Below, one piece after another: positions 7,030-30,089 of a stretch of DNA of 59,921 nt. The stretch spans positions 1 to 59,921 of IMG/VR virus record IMGVR_UViG_3300037071_000511. One strand, written 5' to 3'. The translations under genes and the position numbers were made by a program. Below the pieces are notes generated by a model. It had not been told where the DNA came from and did no database searches. It saw only the letters and a list, made by a program, of their open reading frames with translations. The stretch is from a virus. How positions within the stretch are numbered: the stretch's first letter is position 1; each line of letters begins with the position of its first letter.

Positions 7030-7124
7030 TTCCGCCTCCTTGGTTCAAAGGCCGCGAATGGGAATGGCCACATATCGCCCGGCTGGCGGTCGACCCAGCC
7101 GAGGAATCTGAACAGCCGTCTCAT
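7026..7124 (-). CDS. Possible 32-residue protein after the portal
   Basis: A short frame (MRRLFRFLGWVDRQPGDMW...) starts in an ATGA overlap with the portal stop and ends in a TGA that overlaps the next ATG, so both ends are coupled to neighbours. It is Arg- and aromatic-rich. The tidy coupling argues for translation, but the size leaves doubt. Confidence 0.4.
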   Translation of the reverse strand: MRRLFRFLGWVDRQPGDMWPFPFAAFEPRRRK

Positions 7125-9541
7125 GCTGCGGTCTTCTTCTTGGAACCACCGGCCGAGACGTAACCGCCCGAGCCTTTCGGCACCTCGCCGCGCGCCCGGG
7201 CCGCCTCCGCATTGCGCTGCTCGATCGCCACCTCGCTCGCGAAAATGCGCTCTTTCGACTGGTGATCCATCTGCTTGCCAGCCAGCATCGCCTCCAGTTC
7301 CTGCAGGCTCATGTTGAGCTTGGCCGCCGTCTGGTTCATCTGGCTGTCGTAGTTCAGCTTGGCGATCTTCTCGCGCGAAGCGTTGGCCTGATTGGCCAGC
7401 GCCACCTGCATCTCCATCCTGCGAGCTTCGACTTCGGCCTTGGCCTGCTCTTGCGCTGCCGCTGCCTGTGCCGCCGCGTCGGCCTCGCTCTGCTGCGCCG
7501 CTGCCGCCAGCACTGCGTCGATCTCGTCGTCGGACAGCATCACCTCGTCGGCCGGGATCATGTAGCTCTGGAATATCTTGCGGAGCAGTTCGCGGTTGCG
7601 CAGCATCGGACCAAAGATCGGATGCCCGCCTAGCTGGATGGCGATCACCATCAGGTTCTGCGCCTGCATCTCACGCATGAGCAGGACGGAACTGCCGCGC
7701 GCGTCAACCTCGTAATCGCCCTTGATTTCGGGCTTCTCGTTGAACTGCATGTTCCAGTCGTAGGCCCGCCGGATGTCGGGCGTGGTGACGTCGTCATCGA
7801 AATTCTTGACGATCGCCCGGAACACCGTGTTGGCCGAGTTGTGCAGGAGCGCCATGCCGGTCGCCGTCTGCTGCATCTGGTTCGCGCCCACCTCGCCCAT
7901 CTGACCCTGAATGATCTGCGGCACCGCCGACATCGTGTCGATGAACTGGCTGCACAGCATGATGATGTTGGTCAGTTCCTCCTGCCGGGTTTCGACGTGG
8001 AATAGCTGGAACGGCGGGTTCTCCTTCTGGATGCCGTTCTTGGCAATCCAAATCTTGCGCGGCTTGAGCCGATAGTCGCCGTCTTCCGGCTCGATGTTCT
8101 GCGTGTCGATGATGATCTGCGGGCCGCTCGACACCCCGGCGTTGTCCATCATGGCCCGGAACGCGCCATTCATCGCCGACTGCGGATCGCGGATGATCGC
8201 GGGCATGCCGTAGCCAAAGATCGAGGCTTCGTCCTTGACCAGATTGAACACCGAATAGATGCACTCGCCGCTGTCGTAGGGGTACATCGCGAACTTGAGA
8301 ATCTCGCCCTGACAGAACCAGATGCAGGCATTGACCGAGGTCAGCGGGTCAACCTCTTCCACCTGCTTCAGCGCCTCGTCGGCGATCCCGGTGACGGTCG
8401 TGTCCCGGCTCATCAGCATCGACAGCGCGATGTCGCGCATGTCCTCTGGTTCGAGCGGGCCGTAGTACTCGAACACATGGTAGAGGTCGCCGGTCACCTG
8501 CTGGGTGGCGGCGCGGATGTTGCGCAGTTGCGCAAGGTAGGCTGGGGCCGAGGTCGACGGTGCCAGTTGCAGCAACCGGCGGATCGCATCCTTGTCGAAT
8601 CCATCGAGATGCTGAAGCTCGCGCAGCCGCTTGCGGTTCAGCAAATGGCGCTCGAAGGTGCCGCTCGATTCCTCGATGCAGGTAGAGTCCATGTCGGGGA
8701 AGAAGCCCCAGATGTCGACGTAGCGGTAGGCTGGCTGCGAGCCGGTCGAGACGTCGAGCTTGTGCTCGCCGGTCTGCTGGTCCTGCTTCCAGCCGCGCCG
8801 CACCTTGTCGCCGGTCACCGGGCCCTTGGTCACCCCGGTGCCGAGCTTGACCGTGCAATCGATCTGTTGGCGCTTGACGGTCTGGTAGCGGCATTCCGTC
8901 AACTGGTCATCGATCTCCTTCTCCATCAGGTCGGCGCGCTTGCGGCCTTCCTCCAACCGGGCGTTGAGCACCGAGGCCGCTTGCTTGGCTTCGTCGGCCT
9001 GCTGCTGCGCGGCAGCGGCCTGCTGCTGCATGCCAGCCACCTGTTCCGGCGGGACCGGCGCTTGCGGCGGTTGCCCGGCCTGCGGCGGTGCCGCGGCCTG
9101 ATCGGCCTGTGCCTGCGCCTGTGAAGCCTGCTCCTGCTTCTGCCGGAAATCGGCCGCTGCCTTTTCCGCGCTTTCAGCCAGCGTCGGAACCGGCGTGGGA
9201 CTGATGCCCCAGTTCTTGTCGTCGGTCGGAAACAGGAGGTCTTTCAGCCGCGCCGCCAGCGCATCGGATTTGGGTCGGGTCATGTTGATGAACAGGCCCG
9301 AGCGCTGCTCATCGAACAGCAACTTGGCGGTCACCTCGTCATAGCGGCCATGATACTGCTCAAGGTCTGCGATCCAGCGAGTTTCGAGCGAGGTGCGCTT
9401 GCCTATCCGGCTGGTCACCTCCGCTTCCATGCGGCCGACGATCTCTTTCAGCCGGTCTTTCGATGGCGGCTTTCGATCGGGCATGGATTGCGGCATTTGC
9501 TGCCCTTGCTGCGGCGGATTCATTACCATCAGGTCGGCCAT
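7121..9541 (-). CDS. Portal protein
   Basis: 806 residues. It forms the dodecameric ring at the packaging vertex, where the terminase docks and DNA passes. Visible parts: a helical start (about 25-60), a conserved-looking 'LFINMTRPKSDALAARLKDLLFP' region (about 82-105) found in large podoviral portals, a Gln/Ala/Pro-rich insert (about 130-190), a core with 'ADEALKQVEEVDPLTSV', and a C-terminal Gln/Ala/Glu-rich coiled coil (about 680-780), as expected for a barrel. It follows the terminase nuclease gene by one base. The large size agrees with N4-like and P22-like portals. Confidence 0.8.
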   Translation of the reverse strand: MADLMVMNPPQQGQQMPQSMPDRKPPSKDRLKEIVGRMEAEVTSRIGKRTSLETRWIADLEQYHGRYDEVTAKLLFDEQRSGLFINMTRPKSDALAARLKDLLFPTDDKNWGISPTPVPTLAESAEKAAADFRQKQEQASQAQAQADQAAAPPQAGQPPQAPVPPEQVAGMQQQAAAAQQQADEAKQAASVLNARLEEGRKRADLMEKEIDDQLTECRYQTVKRQQIDCTVKLGTGVTKGPVTGDKVRRGWKQDQQTGEHKLDVSTGSQPAYRYVDIWGFFPDMDSTCIEESSGTFERHLLNRKRLRELQHLDGFDKDAIRRLLQLAPSTSAPAYLAQLRNIRAATQQVTGDLYHVFEYYGPLEPEDMRDIALSMLMSRDTTVTGIADEALKQVEEVDPLTSVNACIWFCQGEILKFAMYPYDSGECIYSVFNLVKDEASIFGYGMPAIIRDPQSAMNGAFRAMMDNAGVSSGPQIIIDTQNIEPEDGDYRLKPRKIWIAKNGIQKENPPFQLFHVETRQEELTNIIMLCSQFIDTMSAVPQIIQGQMGEVGANQMQQTATGMALLHNSANTVFRAIVKNFDDDVTTPDIRRAYDWNMQFNEKPEIKGDYEVDARGSSVLLMREMQAQNLMVIAIQLGGHPIFGPMLRNRELLRKIFQSYMIPADEVMLSDDEIDAVLAAAAQQSEADAAAQAAAAQEQAKAEVEARRMEMQVALANQANASREKIAKLNYDSQMNQTAAKLNMSLQELEAMLAGKQMDHQSKERIFASEVAIEQRNAEAARARGEVPKGSGGYVSAGGSKKKTAA

Positions 9542-9542
9542 C

Positions 9543-10295
9543 TCAGTACCCTGCTCTCTTGTCTGCGAGGCCTATGCCTGCCCCGCCTTGCCTGCCCTTG
9601 GGTGACGGCAACCCAGCCACCCGTTCCCATGTGCGCCAGAGGTAGCGCATGCAATCCATCAGGTGATCGGCCTGCCCATCCACGATCTTTCCGCGCTCGT
9701 CGCGCTGGTACACCCGGTACTCAGCCTTGAAGCTCTGCAGCGTCGAGAAAATCTTCAACTGCCCGAGCGCCAGCGCCTGCCAGCACGCGATCAACCCGGC
9801 CTCCAGTTCGTTGTTGGCGTCGATCAGGATCAGGCCGAGCGATTGATATTCGGCCTTCAACTGCTTGCCATCCTTCTGGCTCGACCCTTTGGCGGCCGGA
9901 TCGATCGCGCCCCTGATCCACTCACCCCGGGTCTTGATGGCGGTGGCGTGGACGACCGGCAGTTGCTGGCCTTTGTAGTGCTCGCTGTAGAGGTAGATCG
10001 TGCCGTCGACCGGGTTCTGCGCGCCCCACAGCGCGGCCGTCCGGTTCCAGCCGACATCGAGCGCGTAGCCCTTCTTCCAGCCAAACGGGATGGCGAACGG
10101 CTTGACCTCGATGTCGCTGATGGGGATCGGGTAGATCACCCCCGAACCCATCGTCGGCTCGCCCTTCGAGCGCGCGTCCCGCAGGTATTCCGGCGTCGAG
10201 TCGAGCAGTTCCTGCTTGGTCTTCTCGTCCAGATGCGGGACGCTGTCCCACCCGGCCTGCACGACGTACCGGGATGGAGAAACCTCGCCCATCAT
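9543..10295 (-). CDS. terL: Terminase large subunit, nuclease half (split gene)
   Basis: 251 residues if started at the ATG at 10295, which overlaps the stop of the membrane protein gene (TGATG). It is the RNase H-like nuclease domain of a large terminase: 'YALDVGWNRTAALWG' with Asp near residue 79, 'GAIDPAAKG' near 133, and 'DHLMDCMRYL' near 210. The upstream 'VVQAGWDSVPHL...STPEYLRDARSKG' part is the normal link region of such terminases. No Walker motifs are present. The ATPase half is a separate gene at 21469-22302. The open frame extends to 10370, but that part overlaps the membrane gene and has no ribosome site. Confidence 0.8.
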   Translation of the reverse strand: MMGEVSPSRYVVQAGWDSVPHLDEKTKQELLDSTPEYLRDARSKGEPTMGSGVIYPIPISDIEVKPFAIPFGWKKGYALDVGWNRTAALWGAQNPVDGTIYLYSEHYKGQQLPVVHATAIKTRGEWIRGAIDPAAKGSSQKDGKQLKAEYQSLGLILIDANNELEAGLIACWQALALGQLKIFSTLQSFKAEYRVYQRDERGKIVDGQADHLMDCMRYLWRTWERVAGLPSPKGRQGGAGIGLADKRAGY

Positions 10296-10507
10296 CAGGT
10301 TATCCGCGGCAGGTGCAGGCCGCCTCCGCTTCCCACCAAATCCAGCAAGAGCAGGATCACGATGATACATAGTACAACTATGGCCGCCACCTTCAGTATC
10401 TTCTGCGGCGGCTCTGGGATGAAGCTGTCCACTACGTACACGAATAAGTAGTACAAGATTCCGATAATCAGCAGGTAGATTATGAGCGTTATGATTGCGC
10501 CTATCAT
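10295..10507 (-). CDS. Two-TM small membrane protein
   Basis: 70 residues with two strong hydrophobic helices (about 2-25 and 38-58) linked by VVDSFIPEPPQK, ending in a Gly-rich tail. The plan resembles the small Thivi_2564-type membrane proteins often seen in phages and proteobacteria; a holin role is possible. AAGGAG is 7 nt upstream. It is clearly more AT-rich than its neighbours. Its position between fibre genes and the terminase nuclease is odd. Three TAGTACA-type boxes fall at 10368, 10447 and 10505, the last over the start codon. Confidence 0.65.
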   Translation of the reverse strand: MIGAIITLIIYLLIIGILYYLFVYVVDSFIPEPPQKILKVAAIVVLCIIVILLLLDLVGSGGGLHLPRIT

Positions 10508-10523
10508 AGTACAGTCTCCTTCG

Positions 10524-11270
10524 CTAGTTGCCCATCCAGTTCGACATGGTCTTCATCATGCCCTCGCGCTGGTAGGGAAGACTGACGTGCGGGACATACG
10601 GATTGCTGCCAATGTCACAGACCATTTGAAGGCCTACGACCATAACAGACACATGGGTCTTGACCGAAATCCCGCCGGGCAGGGCGGTCGCAATGGTCAT
10701 CCCGGGCATGGCCGTAATGGTGGCGCTCACGCCTGCCCCAGACGTTGCCGTGCCAGCCGTGATCGTCATACCCGGGACGGCCGCGATCGTCGTGTTGGCC
10801 TTGCCGACGACCGTAACGGTGCCCGCCGTGATCGTCGCCAGATTGGTCGCGGCGAAGGCACCGCTCACGGTCAGGACATTGACGGTGCCTGCGGTCATCG
10901 TCAGCAGGTTGGTGGTCGCCGAGACAACCGCCTTGCCCTGCACCGTGACATTGCCGACTGAGATCAGGGCGAACGAGGTCGCGGCCGACACCGCAACGCC
11001 GGTCCCGGTGGTGACCGTTTCGTCGCCGATCGAGATCGTCAGGAGATTGGTCGTGGCGTTGACGGTGGCCGTGCCGGAAACCGTGACATTGCCAACCGTG
11101 GTTGTCAGCAGGTTGGTGGTGGCGTTGACCGTGACGCGCTGGGGAATGATGACCGTGCCAGCCGTCATCGTCAGCAGGTTGCCGGTAGCGTTGACGGTGA
11201 CGCTGGTGACATCCCACAGGCTGGGGTCGGTCGCCCACGTACCTACCGCACTGTCCCAGTCGTCAGCCAT
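10524..11270 (-). CDS. Repeat-containing tail appendage protein
   Basis: 248 residues. After a short start (MADDWDSAVGTWATDPSLWD) the protein consists of about seven copies of a roughly 21-residue unit of the form V-x-ATTNLLT-x3-G-x2-TV-x-GKA. A different C-terminus follows (HVSVMVVGLQMVCDIG). Such short Ala/Thr/Asn repeats suggest a beta-solenoid or fibre shaft. The same unit occurs in the adjacent upstream 924-residue protein, from which this gene may be a partial duplication. Translation is probably coupled: the start is 3 nt after the preceding stop. Confidence 0.6.
   Translation of the reverse strand: MADDWDSAVGTWATDPSLWDVTSVTVNATGNLLTMTAGTVIIPQRVTVNATTNLLTTTVGNVTVSGTATVNATTNLLTISIGDETVTTGTGVAVSAATSFALISVGNVTVQGKAVVSATTNLLTMTAGTVNVLTVSGAFAATNLATITAGTVTVVGKANTTIAAVPGMTITAGTATSGAGVSATITAMPGMTIATALPGGISVKTHVSVMVVGLQMVCDIGSNPYVPHVSLPYQREGMMKTMSNWMGN
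10778..11204 (-). repeat. 63-bp coding repeats, array A
   Basis: Tandem, degenerate 63-bp units encoding the 21-residue V-x-ATTNLLT unit inside the 248-residue tail gene. Units differ by point changes and by a shorter central variant. Related units lie in arrays B (11415-11810) and C (12557-12765) of the neighbouring gene. Confidence 0.7.
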
Positions 11271-11273
11271 AGG

Positions 11274-14048
11274 TCACGTCCATGCGCTGCCGCTCCAAGT
11301 CTTCGCCGGTTTAGTCACCCATGCGCTGCCGCTCCATACCTTGGTGGGTCGCTGGACCCATGCGCTGCCGTCCCACACGCCTACCGTGCCTGCTGCTGCC
11401 ACCACCCCAGTATCCACCGTGACCGTGCCAACGGTAGATGTGGCCAGATTGGTGGCGGCGTTGACGTTGGCCTTGCCGACAACCGACCCGTTGCCGATCG
11501 AGGTCGTGGCCAGATTGGTGGCGGCGTTGACGTTGGCCTTGCCGACGATCGTCGGCGTGCTCGTCGCCATCGTCGCCAGATTGGTGGTCGCCGAAACGTT
11601 GGCCTTGCCGACAACCGTCTCGTCGCCGCCGGTAATGGTGGCAAGGTTGGTGGTGGCCGAGACTACGGCTTTGCCGACAACCGTCTCATCGCCAATCGAG
11701 GTGGACAACAGGTTGGTGGCAGCGTCGACAACCGCCTTGCCGACAACCGTTTCGTCGCCCACCGAGACGGTGAGGAGATTGGTGGTGGCGTTGGCCGTGG
11801 CGTTGACCGCACCCGTCGTCGGAGCCGCCGACTTATAGGGATGGCCTGATGGCAGTGCGGTGACGTGGGTGGTGACGCCGAGAATCCCGTCCCACTTCCA
11901 CGCGAGATAGCCCGAAACCTTGTCTTGGATGTCCTGCGACATGCCCGCCGTCATGAAGACGAACTCGCGAGCCGTGCCGAAGCCTTGGCCGCCCGCCGTT
12001 CCGTAGTTCATCAGGGCAGGATTGGCGTCGGGAGTGAAGGTTTCCCCTACTTCGTCAAGGGGAGCATTCCCATCCCGGCCGATCTTGATGCCCGTAGCAT
12101 TGGGGCCTGAGAAGTAAATCTGACCATCAGCAGACGGCCACGTCAGCGTGCCAGCCTGAAAGAATCCACCACCGCCACTGTAGGTGCCTAGATTGTTGGT
12201 GCCAGTTTCGAGCAGAACGTGGTGATAGCTGCCAGCCTGATTGGCGAGGAGGGTGCGATAGCTGCCAGCGGCGTTGGGCTTGCCTGCAAATGCCAAGTCG
12301 AAATACGCAGACGGGAGCGTTGGCATTTGGATGTATAGGTTACTGCCACTCGTCGCATTGGCGATGTAAACGCCATCGGAATTGACCGACAATGTGGTGG
12401 TGCCTGCTGGCGTCCCGTGCCGGGCGTTGCCGCTCTTGTCACGCCACTGGGTGAGGAACCCTCCCGACTGGGAAATCGTGGAAGCGTCCGCGAAATCGTA
12501 CCAGACAATGAGATCGCTTCCGATATCAGCCGGTGTCCACAGCGCACCGCCGCCCGTGGTGACCGTCTCATTGCCGAGAGAGAGGGTCAGCAGGTTGGTT
12601 AGCGCATTGACATTGGCCTTGCCGACAACGGTTGTGCCGGTGCCGACTGTCGTGGTCAGTAGATTGGTGGTGGCGTTGACCGTGACGTTGACGCCACCGG
12701 TCGTGACGGTGACAGTGCCAACCGCAGTCGTGGCCAGATTGGTCGTGGCGTTGACGGTAACGCCGCCACTGGCACTCTCGCCCATCCACGACTTGAAGCC
12801 GGATGGAACGGTCTGTGTGAAATTAGCTAGTCTGGTGCGGACGGTGGCAGCGACACCACTCGTCAGAGCCGATATAAAAACCAGATGATAAACGCCATCA
12901 ACTAACGATGATGTGTCTAATCCTCCTGTGTCTGTTGCCGGATCAGCAGTTCCACTGTTATTCCAGAGGCCATTGTTCTTACGGAACCAGATCAGGTCCG
13001 CCCCAGCATTCCATGCCATGCAGGCAATGTCTGCTGTTGCAAAAGTCCCTAACGCTGCGAGTGAAGTCCCACCCTTAAGCGTAACAGCCCCGTTACCTGC
13101 CGCAGTAAATACGTCCGTAGTCGTGGTAACAGAAGAGCTAGCAAGTGATATTCCCCACTTATTCCCGGTATTATGTACGGTGTTCACAAATTCGGCGTAG
13201 TATTTACCCGCTGCGGGTGATGTGCGCCCCTGTGTAGTTCGTATCCCACCAGACGACGACGATGTGCTGGTTGCTCTCGTATCGCTGACGGATACTGTGA
13301 TATTGGATGACTTGTCACCTGCACTCCATGCATCGGTGGTAAGTAATACATCCCTGAACCCGCCAAGGTTCACGCCCTGAGCGGAAGAGATTGAGGCTGT
13401 CGTGCTGATGGTGCCGGTCGCACCCGCAGTTGTCTTAACTGCATCAAAGATGGCGAGCGAGGTCTGTGCGCCATTCAGCGTGAGGCTATCGGCCCGCTCT
13501 ATCCACGTTGTCGTAGAGGGCGCTGTCGTAGTGTCAGTTGCGCCGCTGGCAGTCGAAGGAGCATTGGCAGATTTGAATGCAGAGAAGGTTGATTCTTGCC
13601 CTCCACATGCCATCCCAACCAGCAAATCATCGTTACTTAATGTCGTACCGCCAGTCATGGTGACTGCGGTGATGGCAGGCCCCGTAGTCGTCCAATTGAG
13701 AAGATAACCGAACAGAGTGTTCGTACCGCGATAAGCAACAATTCGTCCCAGAGCGACACTGATGCCAGCCGGATGTGTAAAGGTCAGGGCAGGAGCCGAT
13801 GACCCACGAACGATAAAGGCCATACAGCTAGAAGGAGCGCCGCTGTTCGACGTTAGGGTGTTGCCGCTGTTCTGGTTAGCAATTTGCGTCCAACCGCTAG
13901 GCAGCGTTATTGCGGTACCCGAGCTAGTCCGCGATGAAATGCACGCGACCAGCAGATCGCCAGCCGCGACACCAGCCGGTTCCGTCAGCGTATGGGTGGT
14001 GGTCGCAGTCTCAACGACTGATGAGACGCCGACGAATGACCATGCCAT
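11274..14048 (-). CDS. Modular tail fibre protein with lectin-like domains and repeats
   Basis: 924 residues; GAGGTGA precedes the ATG. Order of parts: an N-terminal beta domain (about 1-235) with the 'PAGVAAGDLLVACISSR' style seen in phage fibres; a SPRY/concanavalin-like segment (about 240-430, GKYYAEFVNT, KWGISLASS, WFRKNNGLWNN); repeat block C; a LamG-like lectin segment (about 510-740, 'LIVWYDFADASTISQSGG', WRDKSGNARHG); repeat block B of the 21-residue unit; and a C-terminal triple 'WxGSAWV-P-K' motif. It probably binds surface glycans. About 12.8-13.9 kb has different codon use (more AT), a sign of mosaic origin. Confidence 0.65.
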   Translation of the reverse strand: MAWSFVGVSSVVETATTTHTLTEPAGVAAGDLLVACISSRTSSGTAITLPSGWTQIANQNSGNTLTSNSGAPSSCMAFIVRGSSAPALTFTHPAGISVALGRIVAYRGTNTLFGYLLNWTTTGPAITAVTMTGGTTLSNDDLLVGMACGGQESTFSAFKSANAPSTASGATDTTTAPSTTTWIERADSLTLNGAQTSLAIFDAVKTTAGATGTISTTASISSAQGVNLGGFRDVLLTTDAWSAGDKSSNITVSVSDTRATSTSSSSGGIRTTQGRTSPAAGKYYAEFVNTVHNTGNKWGISLASSSVTTTTDVFTAAGNGAVTLKGGTSLAALGTFATADIACMAWNAGADLIWFRKNNGLWNNSGTADPATDTGGLDTSSLVDGVYHLVFISALTSGVAATVRTRLANFTQTVPSGFKSWMGESASGGVTVNATTNLATTAVGTVTVTTGGVNVTVNATTNLLTTTVGTGTTVVGKANVNALTNLLTLSLGNETVTTGGGALWTPADIGSDLIVWYDFADASTISQSGGFLTQWRDKSGNARHGTPAGTTTLSVNSDGVYIANATSGSNLYIQMPTLPSAYFDLAFAGKPNAAGSYRTLLANQAGSYHHVLLETGTNNLGTYSGGGGFFQAGTLTWPSADGQIYFSGPNATGIKIGRDGNAPLDEVGETFTPDANPALMNYGTAGGQGFGTAREFVFMTAGMSQDIQDKVSGYLAWKWDGILGVTTHVTALPSGHPYKSAAPTTGAVNATANATTNLLTVSVGDETVVGKAVVDAATNLLSTSIGDETVVGKAVVSATTNLATITGGDETVVGKANVSATTNLATMATSTPTIVGKANVNAATNLATTSIGNGSVVGKANVNAATNLATSTVGTVTVDTGVVAAAGTVGVWDGSAWVQRPTKVWSGSAWVTKPAKTWSGSAWT
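11415..11810 (-). repeat. 63-bp coding repeats, array B
   Basis: About six tandem 63-bp units near the 3' end of the 924-residue fibre gene, encoding V-x-ATNL-x-T...VVGKA. Neighbouring units share long identical stretches (for example the segment encoding DETVVGKAVV), so array length could change by recombination. Confidence 0.7.
12557..12765 (-). repeat. 63-bp coding repeats, array C
   Basis: Three to four units of the same 21-residue repeat, lying between the SPRY-like and LamG-like segments of the 924-residue fibre protein. It acts as a linker between the two lectin-like modules. Confidence 0.65.
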
Positions 14049-14056
14049 CGGTCACC

Positions 14057-16555
14057 TCACGTCGTGTCGATCCAGATATCGCCCACTGAGGGAGAGGATG
14101 GCTCAGTCGATGAGACGGTGATCGTCGGCACCGGTTCCCAAACGGTGTTCCTGCGCGCGTAGAACACGTCGTCATCCGGTGCTTCGGCTATGCCACGAAA
14201 CTCAATGACGACGGCGGAACCATAAGCAGTGAGTGGGGCCAGACCTGTCGATACGGGACTGATAGCCCAGTCGTCATACGTGCCGTGATTGGTATGGTTC
14301 GACTCGATGTCGAGCATGTACCATTTCGACAGATCGTCAGTGTTGCGAATGACAATCCGCGAACCCTTTTTTAGGCTCGCCCGCGTGTAGTATCTGACGG
14401 TGGTGCCATTCTTGTCCTTGTGATGGATGAACATCGTGGTGGCGCTGCCGATGCTGGCGTCATCGAACGTGATCTCGCCATCGACTGTCGGTGCAGCGCC
14501 GCTGTCATTGTAGGTGAAATCGGTCGGCATTCCGCCGCCGCCGACTACCTGCCACGACCCGTCACCGAGACGCCCATAAGCCTCACCATCATCAGGGGGC
14601 AGACCGAATGTCGGCCAGACGGCTGGTGCTCCGTACTCGATTATAGGCGAGATGAGTGGCACTCCGCTGTCTGCCATGACGGTCAGCGGACACTCATCTT
14701 CCACCGTTCCCGAATATCCCTCGGACGTTTCTATTATTGATCCAGATGGGTTGGTCGTCGGGATCGCTAGGCCAAGTACGTTGTCAGAATCCTCGATCCA
14801 TATGGAAACGATCCACACCATATATTGACCGTAGGCAACCATATTCGTGCCAGGAAAGTACGCTTCGAACCAACCAGTACCATTTACTGAATAATCGATC
14901 TGATCAATGATGATGGCTGGGGTGGTCTTGTTGAAGAGATATATCTTTGCGTTACCGTCCGGTGTTCCGTTCGACTGGATGTAGAACCGTGCGCCGACGA
15001 TCTTACACACATCGCCGTAGTAAACGCTCTGCGCATACATCGTGGCGGGACTGCCGCTGTCAGTAGCCGATTCCTCAAGGTATTCAGTCGTGAGAACGCT
15101 GTATGGCTTGGGGCCGTAGAGTATCTGGTTGGCGGTATCGACGTAATAATCGCCCATCTGACCAGTGCCCGAGTCAGGGGGGTATTCACCATTCAAGATC
15201 GCCGGAACCTTATCCCAAGACTCATTTCTTCGGGAATATAAATACTCATCGTTTGGCGCTTCCTCGACGCCTGCTACACCAGTCCCTATCTCTGTCCAAC
15301 CGCTGTACTGCCGTCCGTAGATCAGACCATCTTGTGGCGCATCAGGCAGACCACCAAGAGCATTGATTTGTACAAGCACAGGTTCCGCGATCAGGTTGTC
15401 ACCACCCATTGCATAGTACTCAATGGACCAACTGCCGTATGTGGTGTGACTTGTCATGTCACTGGTGAGTAGGAACGAGAACCATCTATGAGGTGTGTCT
15501 TTGTTCTGGACAAACACCTGCCGACCAGTACGCAATGACGCTGACAACACTCTCCAGATGTCGTTCCCAGTGACATCGGTGAAATGGATCATGATCTCAG
15601 TGGCAAGTTCCTGATTGATGCCCACCTCATTGAGTGTGACTTCTCCTGCTGATGGCTCAGCACCACTGTCTACAAATGTGTAATTCGAGTGTGCGGTTGT
15701 GACTTCCCATCCCGCATCTCTGCGGATGTATGCAAACCCATCACTTGGTGCATCACTGACACCACCAGTCGGTAGCGTCTGCCACGTCTTGTCACCACGC
15801 CAGTACTGCGATGTCGTGCCGGGAGAGACAAAATCCTCCTTGCCCTCCGTCGAACTCTCAACAAACGCAACCGTGGCGATGTCATGTGCCGTGCCGGGCC
15901 ATGTCGGTGTCGGTGCCTGCGGAGAGCCGGTGAACGACGGCGAATCGAGCGGTGCGTATGTCGTCTCGATCGTGTCGATCTGCGACTGCAGGAACGTGTC
16001 CGTGCCCTGCAGCGCAACGATGTTCGTGGTGTGCGTCCCGGTTGTGGAGGTCAGCAGAGCGAGATCGGTCGTCAGGTTGACAATTGTGGACTGGCCCTGC
16101 GTGCCCGTATGGGCGGCGCGATTGAGATAGTAGCTGCCTGTCTGTGCATCCAGCAGATCGGCGTCGAGGTTGCTGCCCGCACCATCGACAGTCAACAATT
16201 TCGTCAGTATCTGCGCGGCCGTGTCAGACCCGCCGAACGGGCCATAGTCCACGCCGTTTACGTGGCCGTAGAAGCCATCGGTCTTCGCCCAGATGTCGCC
16301 GTCGTTGGGGGAGGTCGGCTTTGCACCGGGCGGAACGTTGAGCCCGGCAACGCCCGTGGTCGAGGCCGTCGTGACCAGCTTGCCCACCACCGTCGTCGGC
16401 TTGTTGAGGGTGAGCGTGGTCGAGGTGTCGGCGAACGCCGTCTTCAAGGCGGTCTTGACCGTGCGGATATGGTCGTCGCCCTCGCTGCGAGGATCAGTGC
16501 CGGTCGGCCATGCCTCGTTCAGCCCTGAAATCAGGGAGGTGGATTCCAGACCCAT
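14057..16555 (-). CDS. Tail fibre protein with EAPxDG-type repeats
   Basis: 832 residues. The N-terminus (LNEAWPTGTDPRSEGDDHIR) is a widespread tail-attachment domain of phage fibres. A helical shaft segment (about 130-190) follows. At least five copies of a motif like E-A-P-x-D-G-x2-Y-x-R-x4-W-x-V are spread over the protein, alternating with at least two copies of a beta domain (from 'FVDSGAEPSAGEVTLN' and 'TYNDSGAAPTVDGEITFD'). That domain also appears in the early-region protein at 39507-40256. The start overlaps the preceding stop. Likely an adhesin. Confidence 0.7.
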   Translation of the reverse strand: MGLESTSLISGLNEAWPTGTDPRSEGDDHIRTVKTALKTAFADTSTTLTLNKPTTVVGKLVTTASTTGVAGLNVPPGAKPTSPNDGDIWAKTDGFYGHVNGVDYGPFGGSDTAAQILTKLLTVDGAGSNLDADLLDAQTGSYYLNRAAHTGTQGQSTIVNLTTDLALLTSTTGTHTTNIVALQGTDTFLQSQIDTIETTYAPLDSPSFTGSPQAPTPTWPGTAHDIATVAFVESSTEGKEDFVSPGTTSQYWRGDKTWQTLPTGGVSDAPSDGFAYIRRDAGWEVTTAHSNYTFVDSGAEPSAGEVTLNEVGINQELATEIMIHFTDVTGNDIWRVLSASLRTGRQVFVQNKDTPHRWFSFLLTSDMTSHTTYGSWSIEYYAMGGDNLIAEPVLVQINALGGLPDAPQDGLIYGRQYSGWTEIGTGVAGVEEAPNDEYLYSRRNESWDKVPAILNGEYPPDSGTGQMGDYYVDTANQILYGPKPYSVLTTEYLEESATDSGSPATMYAQSVYYGDVCKIVGARFYIQSNGTPDGNAKIYLFNKTTPAIIIDQIDYSVNGTGWFEAYFPGTNMVAYGQYMVWIVSIWIEDSDNVLGLAIPTTNPSGSIIETSEGYSGTVEDECPLTVMADSGVPLISPIIEYGAPAVWPTFGLPPDDGEAYGRLGDGSWQVVGGGGMPTDFTYNDSGAAPTVDGEITFDDASIGSATTMFIHHKDKNGTTVRYYTRASLKKGSRIVIRNTDDLSKWYMLDIESNHTNHGTYDDWAISPVSTGLAPLTAYGSAVVIEFRGIAEAPDDDVFYARRNTVWEPVPTITVSSTEPSSPSVGDIWIDTT

Positions 16556-17011
16556 TCAGGCAATCCGGATGATCGCGTTCGTCGCATCGGCCGCAGGCAT
16601 GACCACCGTGAAGTCACCCGCGCTCGATGACTTGTCCGAGACGAAGTCCAGCACCAGCACCGATCGGTTGGCGCTGGTGGTGTTGTAAATCAGGGCCCCG
16701 CGCGCCGTGATCGTGCTCGACGTCCACACCGGGTCGGTCGGGCCGAAGTCGGTGATCGCCGTGACGCCGGATGGATTCGTCGGTGTCACGTTGACCAGCG
16801 CTGTGCCGCCGGTCGTGTAGCCGCTGCCGTTTGCCACCTCGCCTGAGATGTTGTTGGTGCCGCCGCTGTAGTGGTCGGTTGTGGCCGAGATCGTGGACGC
16901 GCTGGTGACGAGCGCGATCTTGAAGGCGTGCCCGGTGGATACCGTGAAGTTGTGCAGCGCCGTCATCAGTTCCACCTTGAAGGTGGTGCATATCGCTTGG
17001 GTCGGGGCCAT
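16556..17011 (-). CDS. Hypothetical beta-rich virion protein
   Basis: 151 residues; AGGAAGGA upstream of the ATG. Ser/Thr/Gly-rich beta sequence (HAFKIALVTSASTISATTD; GYTTGGTALVNVTP) typical of small phage structural proteins. It is located immediately before the tail fibre gene, with which it overlaps. No family recognised with certainty. Confidence 0.55.
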   Translation of the reverse strand: MAPTQAICTTFKVELMTALHNFTVSTGHAFKIALVTSASTISATTDHYSGGTNNISGEVANGSGYTTGGTALVNVTPTNPSGVTAITDFGPTDPVWTSSTITARGALIYNTTSANRSVLVLDFVSDKSSSAGDFTVVMPAADATNAIIRIA

Positions 17012-17023
17012 CCGTCGTCCTTC

Positions 17024-17266
17024 CTATTTGCGGTAGATGCGATCGCTCTCGATCGCTGCCTTAATCCCCGCAAGAATGATCTGGTGCATCTGAACCTGAT
17101 ACGACAGCACCTGCTCCTTGAGCGGCTCTGGGATGTTGTCGCCGACATACATCAGCCGGTCCATGATGCGCTCCGCGAAGAACTCCGGTGGTCGACCGCC
17201 ATTGCTCGTCGTCACCACCTTGACGGACCCGACGCTCATAGTGGTCCCGTCGAACTGCAGCACCAT
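17024..17266 (-). CDS. Hypothetical 80-residue protein
   Basis: Beta N-terminus (MVLQFDGTTMSVGSVKVV), helical C-terminal half (EPLKEQVLSYQVQMHQIILAG). Its start overlaps the stop of the coiled-coil gene. Unknown function in the tail fibre neighbourhood. Confidence 0.5.
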   Translation of the reverse strand: MVLQFDGTTMSVGSVKVVTTSNGGRPPEFFAERIMDRLMYVGDNIPEPLKEQVLSYQVQMHQIILAGIKAAIESDRIYRK

Positions 17267-17817
17267 CAGGGTATCAATTCCCGCATCGCATTGATCCGCT
17301 TGTCGACGTCGGCCCCGCGCTTCATCACCTCGGCATCATACGCCGCGAGCTTGCCCCGCTCGTCCTCCAGCGCCTGCAGCTTGGTATCGAGGTCCGCATG
17401 CCGCGCGTCCAGTTCCATCTCGCGATCGTTGAGCGCCGCCTCGCGCACGTCCAGCGCCCGCTGCAGATCGCCCATCTCCTTGGCCACCGCGCCGCGCTCG
17501 GCCGCGGCCTTGGTCACCGTGGCCGCCTGCTCATGCTCCTGCCGGGCGAGCACCTTCTCGCGCGCGTCGAGCGCTACGTTCAGGTCATCCACCTTGCCCT
17601 GCGCCTTCTCGATGTCGGCCTCTCGGTTGTCCAGTTCGAGCGCCAACGCATCGAGTTCCGCCCGCTTCAGCGCCAGCGCCTCGATCGACACCTCGTTGGC
17701 CTCGGTCGCCTTCTGCAGTTGCTCGATGCGCTCCTTGGTGCCCTTCGGATCGCCGACGATGCCGAGCAGGCTGGTGAAGGGATCGGGCCCGGAGGCCCCG
17801 CGTGAACCGCTCATCAT
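17266..17817 (-). CDS. Coiled-coil protein
   Basis: 183 residues, nearly all one long coiled coil (about 28-180) rich in Ala, Leu, Glu and Lys, with heptad-like repeats of 'LDAREKVLARQEHE' and 'LDVREAALNDREMELDAR'. The short start contains SLLGIVGDPKG. Possible rod-like structural or tape-like part of the virion; family not recognised. Confidence 0.6.
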   Translation of the reverse strand: MMSGSRGASGPDPFTSLLGIVGDPKGTKERIEQLQKATEANEVSIEALALKRAELDALALELDNREADIEKAQGKVDDLNVALDAREKVLARQEHEQAATVTKAAAERGAVAKEMGDLQRALDVREAALNDREMELDARHADLDTKLQALEDERGKLAAYDAEVMKRGADVDKRINAMRELIP

Positions 17818-17819
17818 GG

Positions 17820-18125
17820 CTAAACTCCTAAAATCGCAGCGACCCGGAAGCCCCTGCCAGCCGGAATGCCGACATAGCGCGTTTCACCCGCAGCCAGTCG
17901 CTGCTTGGACGTGGTCGCGGTCGGGCTGGTGCCCCATGCGAGGCACGCCGCCTCTTGGGCGTGAACCATCACGAAGGCGGTCTGGGCGTTGAAGACGGCG
18001 GATTGCGCGGTCGAGGAGGTCAGCGTCATCGCCTGTTCGTTGACACTGGGCTCCATGCCTGCAGCGATGAAGTTCGAGCCAATATCGCGCGCAAGATCGC
18101 GGTATTCCGTCAGGAAAAGCGGCAT
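17820..18125 (-). CDS. Hypothetical virion-region protein
   Basis: 101 residues: a helical start (LFLTEYRDLARDIGSNFIAA), then beta segments ending in 'VGIPAGRGFRVAAILGV'. TGAGGGA acts as ribosome site. It is the first gene after an intrinsic terminator, so it may have its own weak promoter or depend on read-through. No family recognised. Confidence 0.5.
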   Translation of the reverse strand: MPLFLTEYRDLARDIGSNFIAAGMEPSVNEQAMTLTSSTAQSAVFNAQTAFVMVHAQEAACLAWGTSPTATTSKQRLAAGETRYVGIPAGRGFRVAAILGV

Positions 18126-18143
18126 GGCATCCCTCAGATAAGC

Positions 18144-18172
18144 AAAATGCCCGCCGGGTGAGGGGCGGGCAT
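18144..18172 (-). terminator. Intrinsic terminator
   Basis: Perfect 9-bp inverted repeat ATGCCCGCC / GGCGGGCAT with an 8-nt loop, followed on the minus strand by TTTTGCTT. It lies in the 113-nt gap between the 131-residue gene (stop 18239) and the 101-residue gene (start 18125). Confidence 0.7.
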
Positions 18173-18238
18173 GGACGTAGTGTCGAAGGCCGTTGACGCG
18201 AGAATATCCCCCAACGGCTACGAAAACACAACAGGTGC

Positions 18239-18634
18239 CTATTTGGCCTCGGCCTGCCGCAACCTGTTGATCAGCCGCAGAAGCATCGCCCAGTTCTCGA
18301 TGCGGCGGTCGTTGGCCATCTTCTCGATCATGTCGACCTCCTCGTTGGTCGCCACATGGGCGTCGAGCTTGGCTGGCTTGGCGCTGGCCACGATCTTGTC
18401 CAGCATCTCGTCAGCTTCATTCGGCCCGAGCACCCTGTAGCTCTCGGCGTTGGCGACAGTCGGGCCATCGCGCAGCGCCTCGTAGGCTTCCTTGGTCAGC
18501 GGCTTGTCGCCCTTGAACACCGCGCCCTTCGAGGTGATCACCTTGGGCTCGGGCGTCACGCCCTCCTCGATCTCTTCGCCGAGATCAGGCACGTAGCGCG
18601 GGATGCCCGTGTCCGGGTCATACTTCATTGGCAT
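18239..18634 (-). CDS. Hypothetical protein
   Basis: 131 residues. An acidic start (MPMKYDPDTGIPRYVPDLGE) is followed by 'KPLTKEAYEALRDGP' and a helical, charged C-terminal half. AGGAG is 9 nt upstream of the first ATG; between them lies a TAGTACA box resembling those in the early promoters. Ends at a terminator. Role unknown. Confidence 0.55.
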   Translation of the reverse strand: MPMKYDPDTGIPRYVPDLGEEIEEGVTPEPKVITSKGAVFKGDKPLTKEAYEALRDGPTVANAESYRVLGPNEADEMLDKIVASAKPAKLDAHVATNEEVDMIEKMANDRRIENWAMLLRLINRLRQAEAK

Positions 18635-18668
18635 TTTGTACTACTCCTGTTCCGATTGATCAGTCCCC

Positions 18669-19013
18669 CTACTGATCAGAAATCCGGGTTCGTTCTCCCC
18701 GCAAGTCCCCGCGCCGCATCCGCAAGTCCTGATCGATGCTGGTCGTCAGCGTCACGGCCCCGATCTTCACCCGGCATTCCATCCTCGTTATCTGCATGTC
18801 GTCCTCGATCGGCCCGCCTGTCACCGTCGTGACCATCTCGCCGGGGTCGGCGTCCAGAAAGCCCCGGTAGAACCGCGTGAAGGTGAACAGGAACATCCCG
18901 ATCTGCTCGACCATCATGGGCGCGTCAAGCTGGGCCGCCAAGCTCTCCGCGATTGCCTCGCACCCGATCGAGGTGCGAGGGGCCAGTTCCGACGTGACGG
19001 TGAACTCGGTCAC
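18669..19013 (-). CDS. Hypothetical protein, GTG start
   Basis: 114 residues from a GTG at 19013 that overlaps the preceding stop (GTGA). It contains an aromatic helical segment (MFLFTFTRFYRGFLDADPG) and a beta segment (MQITRMECRVKIGAVTLTTS). Not recognised; part of the small-gene chain following the terminase ATPase gene. Confidence 0.5.
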   Translation of the reverse strand: MTEFTVTSELAPRTSIGCEAIAESLAAQLDAPMMVEQIGMFLFTFTRFYRGFLDADPGEMVTTVTGGPIEDDMQITRMECRVKIGAVTLTTSIDQDLRMRRGDLRGERTRISDQ

Positions 19014-19207
19014 TCGACGTTGATGCGCACCAACAGCGCCATCCCGCCGGTATCGAAGTCCCATGCCCGCTTGCGCACCACGTACATCTTGCCGTCGATG
19101 ACGACCTGATCGCCCACCGCCGGGTGGGAACTCATGCCGCAGCTTTTGACAAAGCCACTCTCGGTGAAGAAGTCGGTCGGGATCGCGGCCGGTGCGCTCT
19201 CACTCAT
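19010..19207 (-). CDS. Hypothetical 65-residue protein
   Basis: Starts in an 8-nt overlap with the gp49-like gene. Contains a small SH3-like beta core: 'AVGDQVVIDGKMYVVRKRAWDFD'-type sequence (two parts, about residues 30-50). Unknown function; coupled to both neighbours. Confidence 0.5.
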   Translation of the reverse strand: MSESAPAAIPTDFFTESGFVKSCGMSSHPAVGDQVVIDGKMYVVRKRAWDFDTGGMALLVRINVE

Positions 19208-19547
19208 GGGCCAGCCTCTCGCGCAGCGCGTAGCCCTCCAGCGCCCATAGCTGCCGGATCGCATCCTCCCGGGCGAACTTCTGCCCGAGCACCGGATCGA
19301 AGTTCCCGGCGTCGGCGGGCGCGCTCTTGCCCACGACAGCAAAGCCATTCGTCATCGTCATCACGCAGATCGTCATGTGCGGAATGGCCGAGGGGTGCAT
19401 GTACTCCTCGTCTTCGATCTTGGAGAGCATCGAGTCGAGCGTCACCCGGTTGGGCGTCTTCTGCACCGCGGCGCTCTCGGCGTCGGTCATCTCAATCGAT
19501 GACAGGTCGGTGCGTGCCTTGCGCTGTTCGTCGGTTTCGGTGGCCAT
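19200..19547 (-). CDS. N4 gp49 / Sf6 gene 66 family protein
   Basis: 115 residues. The C-terminal half matches the family: 'TNGFAVVGKSAPADAGNFDP', then 'GQKFAREDAIRQLWALEGY' and 'LRERL'. These proteins are widespread in tailed phages and have no firm function. Here it lies in the late, structural strand among small hypothetical genes. Confidence 0.75.
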   Translation of the reverse strand: MATETDEQRKARTDLSSIEMTDAESAAVQKTPNRVTLDSMLSKIEDEEYMHPSAIPHMTICVMTMTNGFAVVGKSAPADAGNFDPVLGQKFAREDAIRQLWALEGYALRERLAHE

Positions 19548-19571
19548 CTTAGGTTCTCCACGGTTATGGGC

Positions 19572-19805
19572 TCATGCCCGTTTGATCAGGTCTTCGATGA
19601 GGTGGACGAGCTTCCTCGCCTCTTCCTGCGACAGCTTGAAGTCGATCGCGATCTCATCCGTGCCGCCTGCCAGTGTCACCACGATCAATCCATCCTTCAG
19701 TCTGGCCGAGATGTCCACCCTGCCTCGCATCGGTTTCCCCTTCGCCAGTGTGATCGGATGCTTGATCTTGCCCATCTGCGAGATGCGCGACGGGTTCTTA
19801 GTCAC
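19572..19805 (-). CDS. Hypothetical 77-residue protein
   Basis: Beta start with several Lys/Arg and a C-terminal helix 'LSQEEARKLVHLIEDLIKRA' that looks like a ribbon-plus-helix fold. It overlaps the preceding gene by 8 nt. No family recognised. Confidence 0.5.
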   Translation of the reverse strand: MTKNPSRISQMGKIKHPITLAKGKPMRGRVDISARLKDGLIVVTLAGGTDEIAIDFKLSQEEARKLVHLIEDLIKRA

Positions 19806-20049
19806 CGTTCAGCCCCTCATGGAAGCGATCGCGCTGCTCCCGCTTGCGCGCCTCGGCCCGCTCGATCTCCTCGGCCTCGCTCACCGCGCTGAACTCGCGT
19901 GCCCGGTGCCGCTGTGGCAGGTGATCCTCCTTGCGATCGCCGTGCCAGCCCAGCCCGGTGGCGTTCTCGTCCTTCGGCGTCGGCGGATGGTAGTCCTTGT
20001 CGTGCCAGTCGCCGAACAGGCGGGCGATCACGTTCCAGAACCAGTTCAT
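19798..20049 (-). CDS. Hypothetical 83-residue protein
   Basis: Short aromatic/hydrophobic start (MNWFWNVIARLFGDW), then a Pro- and charge-rich stretch and an Arg/Glu-rich helix (EEIERAEARKREQRDRF). The start may attach to membrane. Unknown role. Roughly 90 nt upstream is non-coding and shows nothing clear. Confidence 0.5.
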   Translation of the reverse strand: MNWFWNVIARLFGDWHDKDYHPPTPKDENATGLGWHGDRKEDHLPQRHRAREFSAVSEAEEIERAEARKREQRDRFHEGLNGD

Positions 20050-20141
20050 GCCTGCCCCCTTGGTGAGGCTCCCGGCCGCCCGGTCGTCTTAGCGGGGGGC
20101 TGCGAATGGCCGAGAGCGGATGGGGAGCCTCGGCGCGGACC

Positions 20142-20237
20142 CTACCAGAACAGCACCCACACCACAAAGCCCAGCGCCAGCCAGAACAGCACGCTCGCCA
20201 ACAACCAGCCCCATAGGCTGCGCGAGGTCAGGCTCAT
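20142..20237 (-). CDS. 31-residue single-TM peptide
   Basis: MSLTSRSLWGWLLASVLFWL then a second hydrophobic stretch rich in Trp: one membrane helix. ATG overlaps the stop of the upstream 166-residue gene (TGATG). Tiny phage membrane peptides like this are common; function unknown. Confidence 0.5.
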   Translation of the reverse strand: MSLTSRSLWGWLLASVLFWLALGFVVWVLFW

Positions 20238-20737
20238 CAAAACACCACATCCGCTATCAGGTCGTCCATCGTCAGCAGCGCACCATTCGGCACCCAGTAG
20301 GCCGGGCGTCCATTCGGCTTGGCCGGGTTGCACTCGCCGTACCAGTCCTGCCGCTTGATGTCGCGCCCCTGCATCCAGCCCGCCAGCGTCACGATCGGCA
20401 GCTTCTTGGCGACGACATGCGCCAGAATGTACCGCAGATCGTCCGGGTCGTCGTCGTGCGCCCAGAGCCGCTTGTAGGCCGCGTCGGTCGAGCGCACCTC
20501 GAACCTACCGCCGACGTCGATCACCCCAAACTCGGTGGCGTGCCAGTACACGTTGAAGTGCTTGGCCACCGCCATCTCCCCGATACAGCCCATCCAGTGC
20601 TTGTCGAGCCCGAGCCCGCCATCCTGCTCCGCACCGTGCGCGTCCTCGCGTCGACGCTGGATGTTGGCCACGCTACGCTGCAGCGCCGCCTCACCTGCCC
20701 GGTAGACCTCGCCCCATGACAGGTGAACCTCGATCAT
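20237..20737 (-). CDS. Conserved phage hypothetical, possible nuclease-like fold
   Basis: 166 residues from the ATG at 20737, in overlap with the previous gene. The pattern 'MIEVHLSWGEVYRAG', 'WMGCIGEMAVAKHFNVYW', 'GVIDVGGRFEVRSTD', then 'PDDLRYILAHVV' recalls a family of phage proteins often seen near terminases. The order Glu ... Asp ... Glu-x-Arg is reminiscent of PD-(D/E)xK nucleases with Arg instead of Lys. That is an inference and may be wrong. Confidence 0.5.
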   Translation of the reverse strand: MIEVHLSWGEVYRAGEAALQRSVANIQRRREDAHGAEQDGGLGLDKHWMGCIGEMAVAKHFNVYWHATEFGVIDVGGRFEVRSTDAAYKRLWAHDDDPDDLRYILAHVVAKKLPIVTLAGWMQGRDIKRQDWYGECNPAKPNGRPAYWVPNGALLTMDDLIADVVF

Positions 20738-20943
20738 CGCTTGAGGCTCCACCCCTTCCACCACCAATGCCCGGCATCGAACTCGTAATGGCCGCGATCG
20801 ATCTCGCGCCATTCCAGTGGCGGCACATCCTGCCGGATGACCGGCCGCTCCATCCGCGCCATCTGGATGACCGGCTCGATCGACGCGAGGCGCAGGCCCT
20901 TCTTCGGCCCGCCGATTGCATAGCCTACGTACCCGCTAGCCAT
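20734..20943 (-). CDS. Hypothetical 69-residue protein
   Basis: Start ATG overlaps the preceding stop (TGATG). The protein is rich in Trp and basic residues (HWWWKGWSLKR at the end) and includes 'GYAIGGPKKGLRLASIEPV'. No family recognised. Confidence 0.5.
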   Translation of the reverse strand: MASGYVGYAIGGPKKGLRLASIEPVIQMARMERPVIRQDVPPLEWREIDRGHYEFDAGHWWWKGWSLKR

Positions 20944-21137
20944 CACCTGATCCTCGTCGCCTTCTCCCACATCTGCAGCAACTCGCCATTCAGCGTCTCG
21001 GCCACCACCAGCGCCGTCGCGCGGTTGCCGAAGCCCTCGACGCTGCGCTCCGTGCCGAGCGGCATCTTGCGCCACACATGCCAGCGCCGCTCGTACAGGA
21101 TCGGCTGCCAGAGCGGGATGTCGATCGTGTGCTTCAC
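20943..21137 (-). CDS. Hypothetical 64-residue protein, GTG start
   Basis: GTG at 21137 overlaps the preceding stop (GTGA). Sequence VKHTIDIPLWQPILYERRWH plus 'TALVVAETLNGELLQMWEKA'. Beta then helix; unknown role. Longer in-frame extensions lie inside the upstream gene and lack a ribosome site. Confidence 0.5.
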   Translation of the reverse strand: MKHTIDIPLWQPILYERRWHVWRKMPLGTERSVEGFGNRATALVVAETLNGELLQMWEKATRIR

Positions 21138-21457
21138 TGCAGCGGGCGATGGCCGTTGAGTGACGTCACGTTGGCGGCATTCTTGACGGCCTGCGCGTCG
21201 GCTCGCTTCTTGGCTTCCTCCTCCTCGAACTTGCGCTTCTCGATGCGCCATTCCAGTTCGTTCTTCACCGTCCTGATGTCCTGCTCCAAGCAGACCCTCT
21301 GGTGCGCAAGCTCAAGGTCGGCCAGTTCCCGCTTCATGTGCTTGACATCCATCCCGTCGATCTGATCGCTGGCCTCCCAGTCCGTGCCGAACTCATCCGC
21401 CCACTCGCGGTCACGCTGCCTGTTAGCTGCCCGGATCATGTCTGCCAACCTGTTCAT
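21134..21457 (-). CDS. Hypothetical coiled-coil protein next to the terminase ATPase
   Basis: 107 residues from ATG at 21457, with a strong GGAGGTG site placed 12 nt after the terminase ATPase stop. Helical and charged: 'MNRLADMIRAANRQRDREW', then 'LEWRIEKRKFEEEEAKKRAD'. It is exactly where the terminase nuclease domain would be expected, but it is unrelated to a nuclease. Confidence 0.55.
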   Translation of the reverse strand: MNRLADMIRAANRQRDREWADEFGTDWEASDQIDGMDVKHMKRELADLELAHQRVCLEQDIRTVKNELEWRIEKRKFEEEEAKKRADAQAVKNAANVTSLNGHRPLQ

Positions 21458-21468
21458 CGTCACCTCCA

Positions 21469-22302
21469 TCACATGTGCCCCAGTGTCGCTCGATCGGTCG
21501 CAAGCTGGAATTGTAGTACGGTTTCGCTCATGCCTTCAAGTGGCGTAAAGGTCAGGAGTAGTACGCCTTGCGTCGTCATCAGGCGGATCAGGCACTCGCC
21601 GTACACGTCCATTGGGCATTCCTCATCGAGCCAGATGACGTGCTGGCTGGTGCCCTCGAACGAGCCGCGGCCCTGCTCGTAGCTCTTCATGCCGAGCGTG
21701 CTCCAGCCGCCGCTGACGTGGCGCACCTTGACCGTGTCGGTCAGGTCATCGACGCCGCGCTTCCATGTGACCCGGCCAATGAGGTTGCCGGGGACCATGC
21801 CGGTGCCCTGCAAGACCTTGCGTAGGCCGTCGTAAGCCACGGGGCCGAGCAGGGAGGCTTGGACGATGTCGCGGGTGGTTTCGTTGCGTCGTCCGCATGC
21901 CCAAGCCCTAACAGGGTGAGCAAAGCGCTTACCGCTCCACCACGCAGGATATAGACCTGTGAGGTGCGCCGTAAGCTCGAAGGAGCCGCATGTAGTCTTC
22001 CCGACGCGATTGGCTGCGAGAAAACATCGCTCCCTATACTGCGCCCCGGCTCCAAAGAACTCGATATGCTTAGGATAACGATCGCGGGCATAGATGAGTA
22101 TGGAACCGTCATTGCCCACGCGATCCGCGTCGGGGAATAGATCGAAGTATAGACGCTGCTTAAGCTTCTCGACCAGCGTCGACGTGAGCGCCGCCAGACG
22201 CGCCTGCGTCGGCAGCGACAGTCGCTGGACTTGATCCGCGTCCGGTAGGTCAATTAGCTCGCTCATGGCGACTGCTGATGATGCCATCGAGATATCCCGC
22301 AT
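21469..22302 (-). CDS. terL: Terminase large subunit, ATPase half (split gene)
   Basis: 277 residues; GGAAG 6 nt ahead of the ATG at 22302 favours this start over ATGs at 22287 and 22266. It is the packaging ATPase domain: Walker A-type 'AANRVGKTT' near residue 96, Walker B 'VIWLDEE' near 225, motif C 'TFTPLEG' near 250. The frame stops 13 residues after the conserved 'SETVLQFQ', where intact terminases continue through a linker into the nuclease. The nuclease is encoded at 9543-10295. The two halves add up to about 528 residues, normal for a whole protein. No intein residues or intron remnants are apparent at the junction. Confidence 0.85.
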   Translation of the reverse strand: MRDISMASSAVAMSELIDLPDADQVQRLSLPTQARLAALTSTLVEKLKQRLYFDLFPDADRVGNDGSILIYARDRYPKHIEFFGAGAQYRERCFLAANRVGKTTCGSFELTAHLTGLYPAWWSGKRFAHPVRAWACGRRNETTRDIVQASLLGPVAYDGLRKVLQGTGMVPGNLIGRVTWKRGVDDLTDTVKVRHVSGGWSTLGMKSYEQGRGSFEGTSQHVIWLDEECPMDVYGECLIRLMTTQGVLLLTFTPLEGMSETVLQFQLATDRATLGHM

Positions 22303-30021: not shown

Positions 30022-30023
30022 AT

Positions 30024-30067: not shown

Positions 30068-30089
30068 AGAGGGGAAAGGAGTTCCCCGA

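What the first reader, a model, noticed from the sequence alone, without database searches (positions are those of the whole stretch)
9543..22302. Terminase large subunit split into two genes 11 kb apart
The ATPase domain (21469-22302) has all its motifs and stops shortly after motif C. The nuclease domain (9543-10295) has its own start and all its acidic residues, and sits beside the portal. Together they would give a normal-length TerL (about 528 residues). Between them are about 11 kb of small genes and tail fibres that normally lie elsewhere. Both halves have coupled starts and intact frames, so this looks like a functional split and not decay. A two-chain packaging motor would be unusual. 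An insertion or gene-block move that landed exactly in the inter-domain linker is the simplest explanation.
Basis: partly seen in the sequence, partly recalled or inferred. Interest (0 to 1): 0.88.

Follow-up and report, generated by a model that had tools for sequence, protein, structure and literature searches.

The report
Phage DNA-packaging motor gene in two pieces
In this phage and a whole clade of relatives, the DNA-packaging motor protein, normally one polypeptide, is encoded as two separate genes cut inside its ATP-burning domain, here 11 kb apart with tail-fibre and other genes between them, so the motor most likely has to be put together from two chains.

Summary
Window 21469-22302(-) encodes the ATPase core of a P22-gp2-like large terminase; 9543-10295(-) encodes the nuclease part. 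They lie 11.2 kb apart, with about 19 same-strand ORFs between them, and no other copy of either half was found. It is not decay or misassembly: of 226 non-redundant related loci, 108 have the same break, some in contigs of cultured bacteria. The window sits in a supported clade (UFboot 96/SH-aLRT 91) in which all 35 members are split, with gaps of 7 nt to 11.2 kb, so the split is older than the inserted block. Both genes are under purifying selection (dN/dS 0.06-0.19) and diverge together as tightly as fused halves. One correction: the break is not at the ATPase/nuclease linker but inside the ATPase domain, between the ASCE core and the lid subdomain, so chain 2 is lid + linker + nuclease. 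Likeliest mechanism: a two-chain TerL whose lid/nuclease chain completes the ATPase unit in trans. No intron or split intein was found. HNH genes sit in the same gap in three relatives, not in the window. Split TerL is already known (Arthrobacter cluster AY, consecutive genes); the ASCE|lid cut and long cargo appear new. There is no protein-level evidence.

The parts
21469..22302 (-). TerL chain 1: ASCE ATPase core (P-loop AANRVGKTT, Walker B IWLDEE, motif C TFTPLEG), ending 12 residues after ..SETVLQF; start possibly the internal ATG at 22266
9543..10295 (-). TerL chain 2: lid subdomain (about residues 17-45) + linker (about 46-57) + RNase H-like nuclease; start at 10295 or 10292, overlapping the upstream stop (TGATGATG)
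10296..21468 (-). 11.2 kb cargo block between the two terL pieces, about 19 same-strand ORFs
10295..10507 (-). 70-aa putative membrane protein whose stop overlaps the start of chain 2; homologue in the same place in at least 8 relatives
10524..11270 (-). repeat-rich fibre-like ORF (248 aa)
11274..14048 (-). repeat-rich fibre-like ORF (924 aa) with 66-nt repeats
14057..16555 (-). tail fibre-like protein (832 aa; PHROG tail fibre and Fibritin_C matches)
16556..18125 (-). cargo core of four ORFs (16556-17011 phrog_644, 17024-17266, 17266-17817, 17820-18125), shared with most window-subclade members; two of them lie between nuclease and portal in L037/L064
18239..21472 (-). variable small ORFs, including 19200-19547 (N4 gp49/Sf6 gene 66 family)
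22513..22944 (-). terminase small subunit, upstream of chain 1
   Evidence: phrog_51, 8e-11
7121..9541 (-). portal, directly downstream of chain 2
   Evidence: phrog_332 head-tail adaptor, phrog_1216 portal
4789..5787 (-). major capsid protein
   Evidence: phrog_1357

Best explanation
An anciently split, working large terminase of the P22 gp2 type. Gene A gives the ASCE ATPase core. Gene B gives the lid subdomain, linker and RNase H-like nuclease. Shown here: both genes are intact, conserved, single-copy and co-evolving, and the break is at one place between motif C and the lid in every member of the window's clade. Inferred: the two chains are translated separately from late mRNA and assemble non-covalently. 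The lid of chain B docks on the ASCE core of chain A in place of the missing covalent connection, so each functional motor subunit is an A:B pair and ATP-driven lid movement and DNA cutting depend on both chains. The origin was probably a stop/restart, or a homing-endonuclease insertion, at the ASCE-lid hinge. Once the gene was two cistrons, the junction became a tolerated insertion site that gathered HNH genes, single small genes, and then the tail-fibre cargo of up to 11 kb seen here.
For: Same break in 108 of 226 non-redundant loci, with gaps from 7 nt to 11.2 kb, found with ATPase or nuclease queries in IMG/VR and in contigs of cultured bacteria. In a careful ML tree the window lies in a 35-locus clade (UFboot 96/SH-aLRT 91), all split. 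Uniform chain-1 tails (mostly 8-13 aa) and own starts of chain 2, often TGATG/TAATG overlaps. dN/dS 0.06-0.19 for both genes. Distances of the two halves correlate r=0.64 when the gap is at least 300 nt, against 0.60 when fused. Lid on chain 2: its residues align to D6E TerL from chain position 203, whose lid residues Y213, M216, R224 and linker 230-241 are given in PMC5727402. AF2 models both chains well: pLDDT 92.5 and 82.5, with lid-like helices 24-33 and 36-44 on chain 2. TerS-A-[block]-B-portal-scaffold-capsid order is kept wherever those genes are present in the window subclade. Other phage enzymes split this way reassemble: Aeh1 NrdA, phage 25 gp43 (PMC2988022).
Against: No protein, transcript or packaging data. 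The complex of the two chains was not modelled. The D6E-to-window lid mapping is a distant alignment (about 20% identity). The window and its nearest relatives are uncultured contigs, and no isolate phage with this exact split was examined. The split label follows reading frames, so some adjacent cases outside the main clade could be sequencing errors or programmed frameshifts.
Confidence: 0.8

Rival explanations
1. Chain A is a self-sufficient translocase, like the phi29 gp16 ATPase, and chain B is only a separate cutting enzyme; the two need not form one motor subunit.
For: phi29-type packaging ATPases move DNA with at most a vestigial nuclease domain (PMC7672431 abstract). The chains have separate start and stop codons.
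Against: The lid subdomain, which contacts ATP and moves on hydrolysis in other TerLs (PMC5727402), is on chain B, so chain A alone lacks part of the ATPase domain. The halves co-diverge as tightly as fused ones.
Confidence: 0.1
2. The halves are rejoined: by a trans-spliced or giant intron, a split intein, or excision of the 11 kb block in the cell.
For: terL genes split by group I introns and spliced are known in Jug phages (PMC12363816). L016 and L052 have intein-like insertions in their terL reading frames.
Against: No Rfam intron in the window at E up to 5, nor in nine related loci at gathering score. Chain A has only about 12 extra residues and chain B about 8-16 before the lid, too little for the two halves of an intein. 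Stop and start codons at the break are conserved, and gaps differ wildly in content. No long direct repeats flank the block.
Confidence: 0.05
3. Assembly chimera or a decaying terL in this one contig.
For: The window is a single metagenomic virus record.
Against: Same order in independent contigs L001, L002, L003, L007, L062 and related splits in cultured-strain contigs; dN/dS well below 1.
Confidence: 0.02

Closest known systems
P22 gp2-type large terminase (fused)
   Same: Same family by sequence: 34% identity over most of P22 gp2; nuclease structure 4dkw matched at E 7e-47; same neighbours TerS and portal.
   Different: One polypeptide in P22-like phages and EBPR podovirus 1; two genes here, 11 kb apart.
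Arthrobacter cluster AY terminase (BillyTP), ATPase and nuclease domains in two consecutive genes
   Same: TerL coded by two genes, annotated as ATPase domain and nuclease domain (PMC11920828; PP978841).
   Different: Different TerL family (Pfam TerL_nuclease), genes overlap. About 105 residues follow the putative motif C in the ATPase chain, so by inspection the lid stays with the ATPase and the cut is at the true linker. Here the cut is ASCE|lid and the genes are far apart.
Genes-in-pieces by homing endonuclease insertion (Aeh1 nrdA/mobE, T4 gene 60/mobA, phage 25 gene 43)
   Same: One enzyme split into two polypeptides that reassemble (Aeh1, phage 25); HNH genes sit between the terL pieces in L016, L230 and L052.
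   Different: No endonuclease was found in the window block; the cargo is 11 kb of fibre and small genes.
Group I introns in terL of Jug phages (PMC12363816)
   Same: terL interrupted in DNA.
   Different: Spliced there; no intron detected here.

Membership tests
P22 gp2-type TerL | ASCE ATPase motifs (P-loop, Walker B, motif C) | tested here: met
   Invariant N98 R99 G101 K102, D226 E227, T251 T253 P254 in 76 sequences; Terminase_6N
P22 gp2-type TerL | RNase H-like nuclease fold with conserved acidic residues | tested here: met
   4dkw match; D80 invariant, D132, D210, D214 nearly invariant
P22 gp2-type TerL | Lid subdomain between ATPase core and nuclease | tested here: met
   Present, but on chain 2
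P22 gp2-type TerL | Single polypeptide | tested here: not met
   Two ORFs 11.2 kb apart
P22 gp2-type TerL | Packaging and cleavage activity | not testable with these tools
   Needs biochemistry
Two-gene TerL as in cluster AY | Two consecutive genes cut at the ATPase/nuclease linker | tested here: not met
   Cut is ASCE|lid and the genes are far apart
Homing-endonuclease split gene | Endonuclease gene between the pieces | tested here: not met
   None recognised in the window; met in L016, L230, L052
Group I/II intron | Ribozyme structure at the junction | tested here: not met
   No Rfam match in the window up to E=5
Split intein | Intein N and C halves at the break | tested here: not met
   Only about 12 residues after the motif-C helix start and about 16 before the lid

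The most novel reading that the evidence does not exclude
A whole clade of tailed phages packages DNA with an obligate two-gene motor in which the ATPase core and its mechanical lid are separate polypeptides, so the ATP site is completed in trans and ATP-driven movement is coupled across a non-covalent interface; the junction between the two genes acts as a long-lived insertion site for accessory genes.
Probability: 0.6. Interest if true: 0.78.

Novelty: new variant of a known kind. Interest (0 to 1): 0.62.

Why it matters
How ATP hydrolysis is passed from the ASCE core through the lid to DNA movement is an open question in viral packaging motors. A natural motor in which core and lid/nuclease are separate chains would let each be purified, swapped and titrated. 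It also shows that an essential enzyme can stay cut inside a catalytic domain for a long time, and it corrects annotation: the core alone falls in a PHROG of unknown function (phrog_31467), so such phages may be called terminase-less or incomplete.

Tried and rejected
Intron hypothesis: Rfam on the window and nine loci gave no intron. Intein hypothesis for the window: no room at the termini; intein-like insertions seen only in L016 and L052. Second intact terL in the record: none. Extra fragments at Walker A in L016/L052 looked like introns at first but are in frame. Promoter and terminator scans in the block found fewer sites than shuffles, uninformative. Flanking repeats for block excision: none of note. 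Literature searches for 'split terminase' found little. A first tree placed L236 (fused) inside the split clade; the careful tree did not. Which mechanism first split the gene is not resolved.

Full report
What is there. On the minus strand the window reads TerS (22513-22944), an 83-aa ORF, the ATPase ORF (21469-22302), about 19 ORFs over 11.2 kb, the nuclease ORF (9543-10295), portal, a small ORF, a putative scaffold and the major capsid protein. Both terL ORFs are intact. The ATPase ORF matches Pfam Terminase_6N at 2e-15 and its model resembles T4 gp17 ATPase and D6E TerL (pLDDT 92.5). The nuclease ORF matches the P22 nuclease structure 4dkw by profile (7e-47) and by fold (TM 0.82 on the target). 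Joined, they match P22 gp2-type terminases at about 34-50% identity over 80-93%. Each half occurs once in the record.

Is it real? Related loci were gathered with each half and with alignments from IMG/VR and from GTDB genome contigs. Of 226 non-redundant loci with both halves, 118 have one reading frame and 108 are split at the same place: 47 with a gap under 100 nt, 33 with 0.1-1 kb, 18 with 1-4 kb, 10 with 4 kb or more. Split cases include contigs of cultured bacteria such as Aminobacter aganoensis (1.8 kb), Azospirillum agricola (1.2 kb), Sphingopyxis flava (1.8 kb) and Bradyrhizobium sp. (5.4 kb). In isolate phage records most hits are fused (387 of 415 cover at least 80% in one place). 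So the split is neither an assembly error nor private to this contig.

Age of the split. A quick tree of 211 loci needs 30 changes between split and fused, against a mean of 70 when labels are shuffled. A careful tree of 84 loci puts the window in a clade of 35 (UFboot 96, SH-aLRT 91), every member split, with gaps from 7 nt to 11,212 nt. Fused is taken as ancestral because P22-like and EBPR terminases are fused; the tree itself does not prove the direction. Within the clade chain 1 ends a near-constant distance after motif C, and chain 2 has its own start, often in a TGATG or TAATG overlap with whatever gene is upstream. Both genes show dN/dS 0.06-0.19 among six window-clade members, and the two halves diverge in step (r=0.64 for gaps of at least 300 nt, Mantel 0 of 2000; 0.60 in fused ones).

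Where the break is. The profile of the nuclease chain aligns to D6E TerL from chain position 203 onward. PMC5727402 gives Y213, M216 and R224 as lid residues and 230-241 as the linker; a constant offset of 3 between chain position and paper numbering places all three residues inside the aligned stretch. In the window this is roughly residues 17-45, modelled as two helices (24-33 and 36-44) before the nuclease core. So chain 2 is lid + linker + nuclease and chain 1 is the ASCE core. This is inference from a distant alignment plus a predicted model, not a solved structure.

The cargo. Gaps hold different genes in different relatives: HNH/endonuclease VII-like genes in L016, L230 and L052, single small genes, fibre-like or beta-helix genes (L014, L231), and in the window's subclade a recurring core (16556-18125), fibre-like genes and a 70-aa membrane gene just before chain 2. 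In L037/L064 two core genes lie between nuclease and portal instead, so cargo and nuclease gene have changed places. The fibre genes of the window have lower GC (0.54-0.58) than their surroundings.

Mechanism. Most likely a two-chain TerL with the lid of chain 2 docked on the core of chain 1. Shown: conservation, co-divergence, intact motifs, fixed break. Inferred: assembly, stoichiometry, trans completion of the ATPase unit. Reassembly of split phage enzymes has precedent (PMC2988022). Intron, split intein and decay are disfavoured.

Known or new. Two-gene TerL is known in Arthrobacter cluster AY (PMC11920828). In BillyTP the ATPase gene product continues about 105 residues past the putative motif C, so by inspection that cut is after the lid; no structure match was found for it. 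The ASCE|lid cut, its age and the long cargo were not found described in the papers searched, but the library lacks most subscription journals. Hence: new variant of a known kind.

Noticed in passing
L016:8807-10579 and 11135-12841; L052:5956-8568: Intein-like in-frame insertions in split TerL genes: in the P-loop of chain 1 (L016), two in chain 1 of L052, and one near the last acidic motif of chain 2 (L016). Identified by reading the translations, not by a profile.
   Followed up: partly
window 21469-22302 (phrog_31467): A PHROG of 'unknown function' (261 positions) matches the ATPase core chain at 4e-81 and is probably TerL chain 1.
   Followed up: no
window 10801-12758: Fibre-like genes carry many 66-nt (22-aa) repeats, about 60-76% alike.
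   Followed up: no
window 30023-30086 and 30984-31047: Two 64-nt direct repeats, 77% alike, 961 nt apart, possibly phage promoters.
   Followed up: no
L065 (L037) and L064: Homologues of window ORFs 17024-17266 and 16556-17011 lie between nuclease and portal, with a further gap of about 3.4 kb after the nuclease gene.
   Followed up: partly
loci outside the 35-member clade: More than 60 further split terL loci in other parts of the tree, many with overlapping ORFs; independent splits or frameshifts not resolved.
   Followed up: partly
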